Of a stretch of DNA of 38,790 nucleotides, positions 20,779 through 36,861 are shown piece after piece; the stretch's first letter is position 1; each line of letters opens with the position of its first letter. The stretch is from Deltaproteobacteria bacterium. Its GTDB lineage: Bacteria > Myxococcota_A > Polyangia > JAAYKL01. The translations under genes and the position numbers were made by a program. Where the stretch lies: positions 1 through 38,790 of the forward strand of contig JAFGQN010000054.1 in assembly GCA_016935665.1 (NCBI GenBank). The letters run 5' to 3'. The notes under the pieces are model-generated. The model saw nothing but the letters and a program-made list of their open reading frames with translations, was not told the origin of the DNA and searched no databases.

Positions 20779-22200
20779 ATGGCTCTTGTACTGGTTGTCG
20801 ATGATGATCGACAGGTTCGCGAAACCATTGTCAATGAGGTCCACCGAATAGGCCATGAGGCGCACTGCGCTGCATCGTATGCAGAGGGACTGGCAATGTC
20901 ACTCGGGCATGTGTTTGCGCTGGTGCTGGTAGATGTGCAACTCCCCGATGGAAACGGGCTGGATATGCTGCCTCTTCTGCGAGAAACGCAGCCCTGCCCG
21001 GAGGTAATCATTATGACGGTCAGTGATGATCCTGACGGAGCTGAGCTGGCAATAAGAAATGGCGCCTGGGACTATGTTCACAAACCATTCACGCTGAAAA
21101 TTATTTCTCTGACATTAACAAGAGCCCTTCAGTACCATGCGGAGAAAAGCAAACACGCCATTCCTGTTCCATTGATTCGAGATATGATTATTGGCAATAG
21201 TCCGGCCATTAAGGAATGTCTCCACCAGGTTGCTCTCGCCGCTGCGAGCGGCGCCAATACGCTCATCTGTGGAGAGACCGGCACTGGAAAAGAATTGTTT
21301 GCCATGGCCGTTCATCAGAACAGCTCACGCGTTGACAATAGTTTTGTTGTTATTGACTGTTCCGCGCTGCCGGTCACTCTCGTTGAGAGTCTTCTGTTTG
21401 GTCATGAAAAAGGCGCATATACCGGCGCCGATCGAGCCCAGATGGGACTGATTGCGCAGGCGGACAACGGCACTCTTTTTCTTGATGAAATAGGCGAACT
21501 GCCCTTAAGTATTCAAAAAGCATTCCTGCGTGTGATACAGGAAAGACGCTATCGTCCAGTGGGTAGTCGAAGGGAAATTGTCAGCAATTTCGTCCTAATC
21601 GCAGCAACCAATCGAAATCTCGATGAAATGGCAAAAAGGGGCGAGTTCAGAGACGATTTGCTCCATCGCCTCAAGACCATTCAGATGGTGCTGCCCCCTT
21701 TAAGGGAGCACAGAGAAGATATTAAAGCAATCACTCAAAGTTATGTCAGCCGGTTTTGTCTCAATCATAAAATAGTGATAAAGGGGTTTACACCGGAATT
21801 TTTTGATGTGCTCGAGTTATATGACTGGCCCGGAAACGTTAGAGAGCTTAACCATGCACTGGAAAGAGCCATCGCATCGGCAGGCCCCGGACCGATTCTC
21901 TACCCCATGGACCTGCCAATGGAAATTCGGGCAAAGCTGGCGAGGGAATCGGTTTATGCGTCAATTGACCATCCTGCGAGTCAAAATTCAGATACTCATG
22001 ACAAATCTTTTCCCCAACTTGAAAAAATCCGTTCCGCTGCCATCATCGAGGCTGAGCGTTCGTATCTCATCGAACTGATGAAACACGTTGAGGGGAATGT
22101 CACAGAAGCCATTGCGACATCAGGGCTTTCCCGCGCCAGATTCTATGCCCTGCTAAAAAAACATGGCATTACAAATTCGCTTCGAAACGGGTCATCATAG
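20779..22200 (+). CDS. NtrC-family sigma-54 response regulator
   Basis: A 473-residue transcription activator with three parts: receiver domain (about 3-115, phospho-acceptor Asp52, acid pocket VVDDD, switch Lys in VHKPF), AAA+ sigma-54 interaction domain (about 138-370) with Walker A GETGTGKE, the sigma-54 contact loop GAYTGA (a GAFTGA variant), Walker B GTLFLDEIG and arginine-finger region GEFRDDLLHRL, and a C-terminal Fis-type helix-turn-helix (about 420-465, VTEAIATSGLSRARFYALLKKHG). All key residues are present. No histidine kinase gene is in the window, so its partner is elsewhere. A sigma-54-like promoter stands in front of the SPFH operon just upstream. Confidence 0.96.
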   Translation: MALVLVVDDDRQVRETIVNEVHRIGHEAHCAASYAEGLAMSLGHVFALVLVDVQLPDGNGLDMLPLLRETQPCPEVIIMTVSDDPDGAELAIRNGAWDYVHKPFTLKIISLTLTRALQYHAEKSKHAIPVPLIRDMIIGNSPAIKECLHQVALAAASGANTLICGETGTGKELFAMAVHQNSSRVDNSFVVIDCSALPVTLVESLLFGHEKGAYTGADRAQMGLIAQADNGTLFLDEIGELPLSIQKAFLRVIQERRYRPVGSRREIVSNFVLIAATNRNLDEMAKRGEFRDDLLHRLKTIQMVLPPLREHREDIKAITQSYVSRFCLNHKIVIKGFTPEFFDVLELYDWPGNVRELNHALERAIASAGPGPILYPMDLPMEIRAKLARESVYASIDHPASQNSDTHDKSFPQLEKIRSAAIIEAERSYLIELMKHVEGNVTEAIATSGLSRARFYALLKKHGITNSLRNGSS

Positions 22201-33982: not shown

Positions 33983-35557
33983 ATGAATGATAATAATACA
34001 GATGTAACAGATGTGAATCTACTGTACCCGCACCCGGAACTGGTGCTTGGCATCTGCGCGCCTGTGGGGACCAATTCAAATAGGGTTGTCGATGCCATGA
34101 AGCAGCGACTTGAGCAGCACTTTGGATATACAGTAGAAGAAATTCGCGTATCATCTGCGGTCATCCGCACATATGCGTCGGTTGAGGAAATCCCTGGCTG
34201 GAAAGAATACGAGCGCATTAACGCTTATATGGATGCCGGAAATCATTTGCGATTGCGCACTCGAAGTGACGGCATCATGGCATATGGCGTTATTCGGAAA
34301 ATATTCAGCAAACGCGACCCAAAAAATCTTTATCGACGGAAAACGGCGTACATTGTCAACTCGCTGAAGCATCCAAAAGAAGTGGAGGCGCTTAGAAATG
34401 TGTACGCGGGCGGCTTTTATCTGTTCGGAATCGCTTCTCAGGAAAGCACCCGAAAAAAATTTTTGATGGAGGAGCGAAATGTCCCGGAAGCGGAAGCGGA
34501 AAAATTAATTGCCCGAGATCGCTGGGAGGATGAAGATTACGGTCAACAAACCAGCAAGGCATTTCATTTATCTGACTTTTTCATTCCCCAGGAATCCGAA
34601 AGAGACCTTTTAAATCAAGCAATTTGGCGTTCCTTCGACTTGCTGTTTGGTAATCCGTACACCACCCCTTCTTTCGATGAATATGCCATGTTTATGGCAT
34701 TCACTGCCTCTTTGAGGTCTGCGGATCTCTCAAGGCAGGTTGGCGCGGTCATTACCCGTGACAATGAAATACTTTCTTCTGGCGCCAACGATTGCCCCAA
34801 ATATGGCGGAGGCCTGTATTGGCCTGTGTTTAATGAAGCAGAGAAAAAGTATGTTGATCATGTGGGCGGACGCGACTACACGCTTGGCAAAGATAAAAAC
34901 AAGGAAGCGCAGCAGGAAATCATCGACAATATCCTGGCCCAGATTAAAACTGGCTGTGACAAACTAAATACAAAAAACGGAATCGAATGTCTTTCGCAGC
35001 AGTGTCTTGAAAATATTCGTTCCGCTTTGAAAAACAGCGAAATTCAGGATTTAACAGAATTTGGAAGGGTTGTTCACGCAGAAATGGAAGCAATGCTGTT
35101 TTGCGCCAGGAACAATATCTCATGTCGTGGCGCCACACTCTATTGCACCACCTTTCCCTGCCACAATTGCGCCAAACACCTGATTGCGGCGGGGATAGAA
35201 AAAGTGATATACGTTGAACCGTATCCCAAAAGCCGCGCGTTGCAGTACTATCAGGAAGAGATTTGCGAATCCTCGTTTTACAACACGGAAAAATCCGATA
35301 AAGTGGCATTTGTTCCTTTTGTGGGCGTGGGGCCTCGAAAGTTTTTCGACTTATTCTCCACGAAGCTAAGCTCTGGTTATGTTGTCAAGAGAAAAGACAG
35401 TGACGGAAAAATTGCCGACTGGACCAAGGAAAATGCGTCACCACGGTTGAACATGACACCAATTGACTATTTTCAAAAGGAAGCAATTGCTGTAGATATA
35501 TTCAGCCGTATAATAGAACAATTCGAAAAGGAGAATTTTAATGACAAAGCCGAATGA
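33983..35557 (+). CDS. Anti-phage dCTP deaminase (DCD/AvcD type)
   Basis: A 524-residue two-domain protein of the anti-phage dCTP deaminase family, which on infection converts dCTP/dCMP to dUTP/dUMP and starves phage replication. N-terminal part (about 15-200): nucleotide-kinase-like P-loop region ELVLGICAPVGTNSNRVVDAMKQRL, with the loop lacking the usual Lys, and FYLFGIAS/SKAFHLSDFFI. C-terminal part (about 228-470): zinc deaminase with ADLSRQVGAVI, zinc ligand His365 and catalytic Glu367 in VVHAEMEA, and Cys393/Cys396 in FPCHNC, followed by KVIYVEPYPKS. Full length for the family. A 59-codon gene overlaps its end; in known AvcID systems the deaminase is held by a small RNA encoded upstream, which cannot be judged here. 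Confidence 0.94.
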   Translation: MNDNNTDVTDVNLLYPHPELVLGICAPVGTNSNRVVDAMKQRLEQHFGYTVEEIRVSSAVIRTYASVEEIPGWKEYERINAYMDAGNHLRLRTRSDGIMAYGVIRKIFSKRDPKNLYRRKTAYIVNSLKHPKEVEALRNVYAGGFYLFGIASQESTRKKFLMEERNVPEAEAEKLIARDRWEDEDYGQQTSKAFHLSDFFIPQESERDLLNQAIWRSFDLLFGNPYTTPSFDEYAMFMAFTASLRSADLSRQVGAVITRDNEILSSGANDCPKYGGGLYWPVFNEAEKKYVDHVGGRDYTLGKDKNKEAQQEIIDNILAQIKTGCDKLNTKNGIECLSQQCLENIRSALKNSEIQDLTEFGRVVHAEMEAMLFCARNNISCRGATLYCTTFPCHNCAKHLIAAGIEKVIYVEPYPKSRALQYYQEEICESSFYNTEKSDKVAFVPFVGVGPRKFFDLFSTKLSSGYVVKRKDSDGKIADWTKENASPRLNMTPIDYFQKEAIAVDIFSRIIEQFEKENFNDKAE

Positions 35558-35720
35558 CAAAAAAAAGGGAATTTTCTCCAACGACAAAGTTGTTCAAACG
35601 GCCAGAGAACTCATCGAGAAGATGCCAGGCTGGCAAAAAACATATGCCAAAGAAATAATTGAATCCGCAACGCGTCCGGTATCGCGATCTTCCTCCTTCC
35701 CCCCCAAAATGCTCGGTTAA
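35541..35720 (+). CDS. 59-codon gene overlapping the dCTP deaminase gene
   Basis: Starts at the ATG at 35541, inside the last codons of the deaminase gene (17-base overlap), with AAAGGAG seven bases upstream, and ends at TAA 35718-35720. The product is basic and helical: MTKPNDKKKGIFSNDKVV, then QTARELIEKMPGWQKTYAKEII, with a Ser/Pro-rich tail. No family known to me. The strong ribosome site and overlap indicate co-translation with the deaminase, so a role as regulator, inhibitor or partner of the defence enzyme is the natural guess. A fortuitous frame cannot be excluded given its length. Confidence 0.6.
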   Translation: MTKPNDKKKGIFSNDKVVQTARELIEKMPGWQKTYAKEIIESATRPVSRSSSFPPKMLG

Positions 35721-35906
35721 TCGCCAGCGCTTCCCTTCATTTTTAGCTTTTTCACATCGTCAGGTATTAGGCTTTGTCTCAAAAGGTGATTGAGCCTTTC
35801 AGTCTGCTGCCCCTTACCCCGAAGGGGCCGAAGCAATCGGATAGCCGGGACGATCACTCACCTCCGGCTCCCACACCACCGTGCGTACGGTTCCGTACAC
35901 GGTGGT

Positions 35907-36149
35907 TCAGGTTGAAAAATTGAAACGTTGATATTCGTTGAAGAGGCTTTTAAGTCCCATTTGGGCCAGCGTTTTGTTTTGATAGGCCATCTGCATGGCA
36001 GGGTGTCGTGCTGATTTCCATGGACCCGCGTTTGAGCAGGCCAGACTGTGGGCTATGGAGAGTGATGCGCCATGAGAAATCAGATTCTTTATACGGGTTC
36101 GCAATCGTTTCCACTGACGCCATATGATACATCTGATTCTGCGACGAAT
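35907..36149 (-). pseudogene. C-terminal maturase fragment of group II intron protein
   Basis: The frame reads IRRRIRCIIWRQWKRLRTRIKNL, then GPWKSARHPAMQMAYQNKTLAQMGLKSLFNEYQRF, matching the maturase-specific end of group II intron proteins. The codon before IRRR is TGA where the family has Trp (TGG), so a stop mutation lies there too. It is only about 65 bases from the N-terminal fragment, so roughly 1 kb of coding sequence has been deleted. Confidence 0.85.
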
Positions 36150-36214
36150 TCAGTCGGCCCATCGCCCAGCCGGTTTCATCAAGCCGAAAGTGTGAGGCCC
36201 AACCGATTATTGTC

Positions 36215-36496
36215 TTAAGGACCCAGTTCTTCCACGGTCATTCGGTCGACGCCCGGGGCGCCTTTGTTCCCTTTTACTCTCTTATACGCTGTCCAAATGT
36301 TCACTTTGCGAAGCACCTCCTCAAGTAACGCCATCGTTTCCTCCCCGGCATTCTCATCGTGTGCCGAACGCGTTTGACTCTCGTTTCCGCCCCGTTCCGT
36401 GTTTCCGACATCTCCCGTGGCGGGCGCATGGCCCTTCTCTGGCCAACTGGACAAGCCTCCTTCGCGCTTCGAACTCTTCGTTCCGGTTCTCTTCAT
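36215..36496 (-). pseudogene. N-terminal fragment of group II intron reverse transcriptase
   Basis: A 93-codon frame whose end, LLEEVLRKVNIWTAYKRVKGNKGAPGVDRMTVEELGP, is the canonical start of intron-encoded reverse transcriptases (the L-x-R-A-x-x-R-V-K-x-N-K-G-A-P-G-V-D block). It stops right there, so RT domains 1-7 with the YADD site are missing. The start ATG is uncertain; the first 55 codons overlap intron RNA sequence. Confidence 0.85.
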
Positions 36497-36861
36497 CCCG
36501 TTCCTCCGACACCGTCGTTCGCAGACGGCTTACGGATTCCGCTGACTTCTGTCTGCCCATCGGCCACCTTGCGGCGTTCCCTGTTCGTCCATGGTTTACC
36601 TCCCCATTTCGAACAGACAGACAGCTCTCCCGGGGTAAGACGTGTGACCTTCGTTCCACATATCCGCCGCATCTACAGTAGTGGCGTCCGGATGACTTGC
36701 GGGCTTTGGACCAACCTGCGCCCTTCCCCATCGCCACCTCTGCCTCATATGCGGTTTGTGGTCCTCGGACCGGAACTTTGCCTCCAGCTTCCTCCCCACG
36801 CACCCTCGCGGCGAGTCGGGTTAACGTTTTAGAGAATCGTTCATACTTTGACCGGAAAATG

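What the first reader, a model, noticed from the sequence alone, without database searches (positions are those of the whole stretch)
33983..35720. Anti-phage dCTP deaminase with an overlapping 59-codon partner gene
The dCTP deaminase is intact and full length, with all zinc and catalytic residues. A 59-codon gene starts inside its last codons behind a strong ribosome site. Known deaminase defence systems are controlled by an upstream small RNA; a coupled downstream small protein would be a different control or effector layout. The accessory surroundings (Rpn nuclease remnant, group II intron remnant) fit a defence-prone region.
Basis: partly seen in the sequence, partly recalled or inferred. 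Interest (0 to 1): 0.7.

Follow-up and report, generated by a model that had tools for sequence, protein, structure and literature searches.

The report
Anti-phage deaminase with small partner
Bacteria carry an enzyme that starves invading viruses of a DNA building block, and in one large branch of this enzyme family a tiny, unnamed second gene almost always sits right behind it, probably to keep the enzyme in check; some viruses carry look-alike copies of that tiny gene.

Summary
The deaminase is intact, scores above the NF041025 cut-off and keeps its HAE/PCxxC residues. A 59-codon ORF starts 17 nt inside it behind AAGGAG. In bacterial genomes searched whole, its only strong hits lie beside the deaminase, except one inside a phage-type protein. 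In E. coli P4-like satellites the hotspot cargo is exactly deaminase plus small gene. AvcD-type deaminases form a separate clade: 0 of 13 have the downstream gene, 12 of 13 have an upstream ORF at the AvcI position. So the window holds an apparently undescribed two-gene layout of a known defence enzyme. Most likely the small protein, a predicted helical hairpin, is a coupled protein inhibitor taking the place of AvcI RNA; this is inferred, not shown. Relatives stand alone in two lytic jumbo phages, as antitoxin mimics would. Caveat: the window's own copy (MPGWQK) is divergent and is recognised by position plus P.W, not by a significant profile score.

The parts
33983..35557 (+). Anti-phage dCTP/dCMP deaminase, 524 aa: N-terminal kinase-like domain plus C-terminal cytidine deaminase domain
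   Evidence: NF041025 458.1 bits over cut-off 400; PADLOC dCTPase; PF00383; fold matches of a relative's model to adenylate-kinase-related 3h0k and dCMP deaminases
35075..35083 (+). HAE catalytic motif (aa 365-367)
   Evidence: read in sequence; conserved in alignments
35156..35170 (+). PCHNC zinc motif (aa 392-396)
   Evidence: read in sequence; invariant in alignments
35528..35533 (+). Shine-Dalgarno AAGGAG of the small gene, 7 nt before ATG, inside the deaminase frame
   Evidence: read in sequence; SD-like word in 34 of 46 relatives
35541..35557 (+). 17-nt overlap of the two genes
   Evidence: overlap of up to 60 nt in 26 of 46 relatives
35541..35720 (+). 59-codon partner gene, divergent member of the WP.WK family
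   Evidence: position, size, SD, aligned P.W; weak profile score
35622..35639 (+). MPGWQK, counterpart of the family motif WP.WK
   Evidence: alignment A3

Best explanation
A two-gene anti-phage cassette. The first gene is a dCTP/dCMP deaminase that would deplete dC nucleotides during infection. The second, translated from an overlapping start, is a 50-70-residue protein predicted as a helical hairpin with a P.W turn and loose ends. The small protein most likely binds the deaminase and holds it inactive in uninfected cells, doing with a protein what AvcI RNA does for AvcD; when a phage shuts down host expression, the small labile protein would be lost and the enzyme freed. Shown here: enzyme identity, conserved gene pair, coding selection, close linkage, mutual exclusion with the AvcI-type layout. 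Inferred: binding, inhibition, lability, trigger.
For: Small gene present in 42 of 50 window-like loci and in 0 of 13 AvcD-like loci, which instead have an upstream ORF in 12 of 13; the two layouts fall in different clades. Purifying selection on the small frame. One strong hit per genome, at the deaminase. Two-gene cargo of an E. coli P4-like satellite. Overlapping or adjacent starts with SD. AvcD needs an inhibitor to be harmless and is freed on transcription shut-off (PMC9455884, PMC10511110). Stand-alone relatives in two jumbo phages without a deaminase beside them.
Against: No binding or inhibition data. The read-through model did not dock the small part (pLDDT about 35). A second-gene antitoxin is the less usual order. 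The phage copies also occur as a module inside larger proteins, which suggests a wider role than silencing one enzyme. L010, L015, L093 and L125 are window-like and show no such gene. The window's own copy is divergent.
Confidence: 0.5

Rival explanations
1. The small protein is a required subunit, activator or phage sensor rather than an inhibitor: its hairpin docks on the enzyme or captures a phage product and switches the enzyme on. The phage proteins with the same module would then be its natural cue or competitors.
For: The module recurs inside larger proteins of phages D3, KPP10, phiTE, Peat1 and P018-4. The gene follows the enzyme in translation, as subunits often do.
Against: The sister clade is inhibitor-controlled and lacks the gene. 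The module inside a phage protein is no proof of sensing.
Confidence: 0.3
2. The family gene is real, but the window ORF is not a member or is decaying: a chance or degenerate ORF at the same place, so this copy of the deaminase may act alone.
For: Leave-one-out scores are not significant; MPGWQK departs from WP.WK; a group II intron fragment lies about 115 bp downstream.
Against: Right place, length, Shine-Dalgarno and overlap. Aligned P and W kept. Best tblastn match among 65 loci falls on the downstream gene of L036, E 0.013. The deaminase lies in the downstream-gene clade. Other partners also keep only P.W (L030, L088, L091).
Confidence: 0.15
3. The conserved downstream segment acts as RNA (a downstream AvcI-like RNA) and the frame is secondary.
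For: AvcI of the sister clade is described as RNA.
Against: pN/pS 0.12-0.53 in three groups, amino-acid motif kept across phyla, SD and start coupling; no Rfam match at the place in the window.
Confidence: 0.05

Closest known systems
AvcID type III toxin-antitoxin system (AvcD deaminase plus AvcI RNA)
   Same: Same enzyme family and expected chemistry (dCTP/dCMP to dUTP/dUMP); a small genetic partner beside the enzyme
   Different: About 29-38% identical deaminases in a separate clade; partner is upstream and described as RNA; the window has a downstream protein-coding partner
E. coli 'dCTP deaminase' defence gene as catalogued (NF041025, PADLOC dCTPase)
   Same: The window deaminase is a member by score
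   Different: Catalogued as one gene; the small partner is not in the models or in Pfam, NCBIfam or PADLOC
E. coli P4-like satellite cargo WP_044686932 + WP_000021256
   Same: Deaminase 47% identical, small gene 1 nt after it with EWPEWKK
   Different: Sits in a mobile satellite; its small gene is a typical WP.WK member, the window's is divergent
PHROG 38465 and 29728 (unknown function)
   Same: 18 and 6 of 32 small proteins match them
   Different: Uncharacterised phage clusters; the window copy itself does not match
Clover (CloA dGTPase with CloB)
   Same: Nucleotide-depleting defence enzyme restrained by a partner gene (PMC12265719)
   Different: CloB is an enzyme that makes a nucleotide inhibitor; here the partner is about 55 residues with no enzyme domain found

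Membership tests
NF041025 anti-phage dCTP deaminase | Score over curated cut-off (400 bits) | tested here: met
   458.1 bits, aa 19-461
NF041025 anti-phage dCTP deaminase | Deaminase zinc/catalytic residues HAE and PCxxC | tested here: met
   aa 365-367 and 392-396
NF041025 anti-phage dCTP deaminase | dCTP deamination and phage protection | not testable with these tools
   needs experiment
AvcID type III toxin-antitoxin | AvcD-clade deaminase | tested here: not met
   Window lies in the downstream-gene clade
AvcID type III toxin-antitoxin | AvcI locus just upstream | tested here: not met
   No upstream ORF of the AvcI-position type in any of 50 window-like loci; none seen upstream of the window deaminase, where a divergent ORF begins 68 nt away; no Rfam model of AvcI exists to test the RNA itself
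WP.WK small partner family (defined here) | Same-strand gene of about 50-75 codons overlapping or adjoining the deaminase stop | tested here: met
   35541-35720, overlap 17 nt
WP.WK small partner family (defined here) | P.W of the WP.WK turn | tested here: met
   aligned in 32 sequences with P and W invariant
WP.WK small partner family (defined here) | Significant profile score without itself in the model | tested here: inconclusive
   1.4 bits; 5.3% of shuffles and 1.7% of background ORFs as good; not reported in own genome
Type II toxin-antitoxin (works-like comparison) | Small protein partner translated from an adjoining frame | tested here: met
Type II toxin-antitoxin (works-like comparison) | Protein binds and inhibits the toxin and is labile | not testable with these tools
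   Read-through model uninformative

The most novel reading that the evidence does not exclude
A large branch of the anti-phage dCTP deaminases is controlled by an undescribed protein antitoxin, and lytic phages (XbC2 and Kaldavass as stand-alone genes; KPP10-, D3- and phiTE-type phages as a module) carry captured copies that disarm it. In the sister branch, part of the supposedly non-coding AvcI locus also encodes a conserved small protein.
Probability: 0.25. Interest if true: 0.8.

Novelty: new variant of a known kind. Interest (0 to 1): 0.62.

Why it matters
A defence enzyme that is catalogued as a single gene has a near-constant second gene across several bacterial phyla, including E. coli satellites where it can be tested at once. 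If the small protein is an inhibitor, it explains how this branch avoids self-harm without AvcI, means that tests of the enzyme alone miss half of the system, and points to candidate phage counter-defence genes.

Tried and rejected
(1) Small gene as a chance ORF: rejected for the family by conservation, selection and position. (2) Homology between the downstream proteins and the upstream AvcI-position ORFs, suggested by similar 'ASK..W' ends: profile comparison gave probability 0.1%, not supported. (3) Docking by AF2 through a natural read-through (L026, one TAA read as Gly): deaminase confident, small part pLDDT about 35, uninformative; a mixed alignment meant to deepen it placed the small proteins on the deaminase GLYWP motif and was discarded. 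(4) A known family or structure for the small protein: none in Pfam, NCBIfam, PADLOC or PDB sequences. (5) Rfam model of AvcI: none matched. (6) A viral-contig scan with one small protein found nothing, and the alignment was too variable to scan with. (7) Rpn remnant: not confirmed. (8) Papers: no mention found of a downstream partner; the P4 hotspot paper does not mention deaminases. The two founding deaminase papers are not held, so an earlier mention cannot be excluded.

Full report
Observation. The window holds an intact 524-aa deaminase at 33983-35557 (+). It passes the NCBIfam cut-off for anti-phage dCTP deaminase (458.1 vs 400 bits) and matches PADLOC dCTPase. HAE at aa 365-367 and PCHNC at 392-396 are kept and conserved in relatives. 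The AF2 model of a relative (L026) matches an adenylate-kinase-related fold (3h0k) and dCMP deaminases (2hvw, 1vq2). The 59-codon ORF 35541-35720 begins 17 nt inside the deaminase, 7 nt after AAGGAG.

Is the small gene real? Among 45 deaminase loci from GTDB genomes, most have an ORF of 49-76 codons at the deaminase stop with a shared V..WP.WK motif. A profile of these ORFs, searched against 4,314 ORFs on both strands of 71 loci, hits with E<0.1 only at the deaminase 3' end on the same strand; the next place has E above 1. In a larger, de-duplicated set, 42 of 50 window-like deaminases have the gene. Of the eight misses, L035, L039 and L040 carry a small ORF with a Trp motif in the same place. 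pN/pS is 0.12 (Pseudomonas set A), 0.33 (set B) and 0.53 (Photorhabdus), with the helix and WP.WK kept and the tail freer. Starts are tightly coupled: 26 of 46 overlap the deaminase by up to 60 nt, 14 of them by exactly 4 nt; 12 start within 20 nt after it; 34 of 46 have an SD-like word. Several hits (E. coli satellite L092, viral contigs L097 and L099-L101, L142) were not used to build the profile.

The pair is a unit. In seven whole genomes the profile had at most one strong hit, the deaminase locus. In 248 Enterobacterales and 198 Pseudomonadaceae genomes the only hits were the two deaminase-linked genes and one module inside a phage-type protein. In E. coli the two genes are the cargo between psu and the integrase of a P4-like satellite beside tRNA-Sec. 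The small gene is annotated 'hypothetical protein' WP_000021256, and the deaminase is 47% identical to the window's. P4-like satellites are known to carry hotspots of antiviral systems (PMC9122126), but that paper does not mention deaminases.

Contrast with AvcID. A tree of 69 deaminases puts the window in the downstream-gene clade (98/97), next to Clostridia/Acidaminococcaceae sequences (99/93); loci with an upstream small ORF form their own clade (100/97) inside a 14-row set without downstream genes. The classes do not mix: 0 of 13 AvcD-like loci have the downstream gene and 0 of 50 window-like loci have the upstream ORF. AvcI is described as an upstream RNA that binds and inhibits AvcD and is lost on transcription shut-off (PMC9455884, PMC10511110).

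The window copy is the weak point. MPGWQK replaces WP.WK. In an alignment of 32 sequences P and W stay invariant with it included, and its best tblastn match falls on the downstream gene of L036 (E 0.013). But a leave-one-out motif model gives only 1.4 bits, matched by 5.3% of shuffles and 32 of 1,933 background ORFs, and a leave-one-out search of its own genome does not report it. Other divergent partners also keep only P.W (L030, L088, L091). Position, size, SD, overlap and clade make homology likely; sequence alone does not prove it.

Mechanism. AF2 on the small family predicts two helices joined at the WP.W turn (H14-33, H37-55; block pLDDT about 93 around the turn) with a loose N-terminus. 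A read-through fusion of L026 did not place it on the enzyme, so binding is untested. The enzyme family depletes dC nucleotides and harms the cell if unrestrained (literature), and the small gene stands where AvcI is missing, so an inhibitory role is the most economical reading (about 0.5). Stand-alone relatives of 37-38 aa occur in the jumbo phages XbC2 and Kaldavass without a deaminase beside them, and the module occurs inside larger proteins of phages D3, KPP10, phiTE, Peat1 and P018-4. This fits phage antitoxin mimics, for which ICP1 AdfB against DarTG is a precedent (PMC11481870), but it also fits a more general phage module (rival 1).

Side result on AvcI. Upstream ORFs of 56-68 codons in the AvcD clade end in a shared ..A....W*. 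Pairs show coding-type change: codon-position differences 10/3/15 in the last 22 codons of L104/L147 and 16/20/33 over the ORF of L069/L070, with three different stop codons and spacers of 11-87 nt. So part of the AvcI region looks translated. Published data nonetheless support RNA action: a complex of AvcI with AvcD in vitro, and loss of AvcI with rifampicin but not spectinomycin. The founding papers could not be read.

Verdict. A real and widely conserved two-gene layout around a known defence enzyme, with a partner protein that has no name in the libraries searched. New variant of a known kind. The partner's function is inferred, not shown.

Noticed in passing
L104, L147, L069, L070, L068, L071, L074, L123, L095: upstream of the deaminase: The AvcI-position region of AvcD-type loci holds an ORF of 56-68 codons with a conserved C-terminal helix ending in Trp-stop and coding-type substitutions, although AvcI is described as non-coding RNA.
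   Followed up: partly
L156 1495-1608 (XbC2 gp73), L157 1495-1611 (Kaldavass CDS0585): Stand-alone 37-38 aa relatives of the partner protein in two jumbo phages, in a run of tiny genes after polynucleotide kinase, with no deaminase in the stretch read.
   Followed up: partly
L158, L159, L160, L161, L162, L163, L164, L165: The same helix-WP.[WY]K module inside larger proteins of phages D3, KPP10, Epa16, 15G, Peat1, phiTE and P018-4, and in one Pseudomonas genome.
   Followed up: partly
window 35836-36815 (-): Group II intron pieces (D1-D4 and domain V type matches) with only a short reverse-transcriptase remnant; the intron ends about 115 bp beyond the small gene and does not cut it.
   Followed up: yes
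G000:C125:21217-22590 (L090): The same genome has a second, distant deaminase (about 34-38% identical) in the clade without WP.WK genes, followed at +19 by an unrelated-looking 60-codon ORF.
   Followed up: no
L092, L096 (E. coli): P4-like satellites beside tRNA-Sec carry the deaminase and its partner as hotspot cargo; deaminase hits of the same kind are listed in some O157:H7 chromosomes.
   Followed up: partly
window 20779-22200 (+): Response regulator with a sigma-54 activator domain also scores against PADLOC RtcR/PspF models, probably through the shared AAA/HTH part.
   Followed up: no
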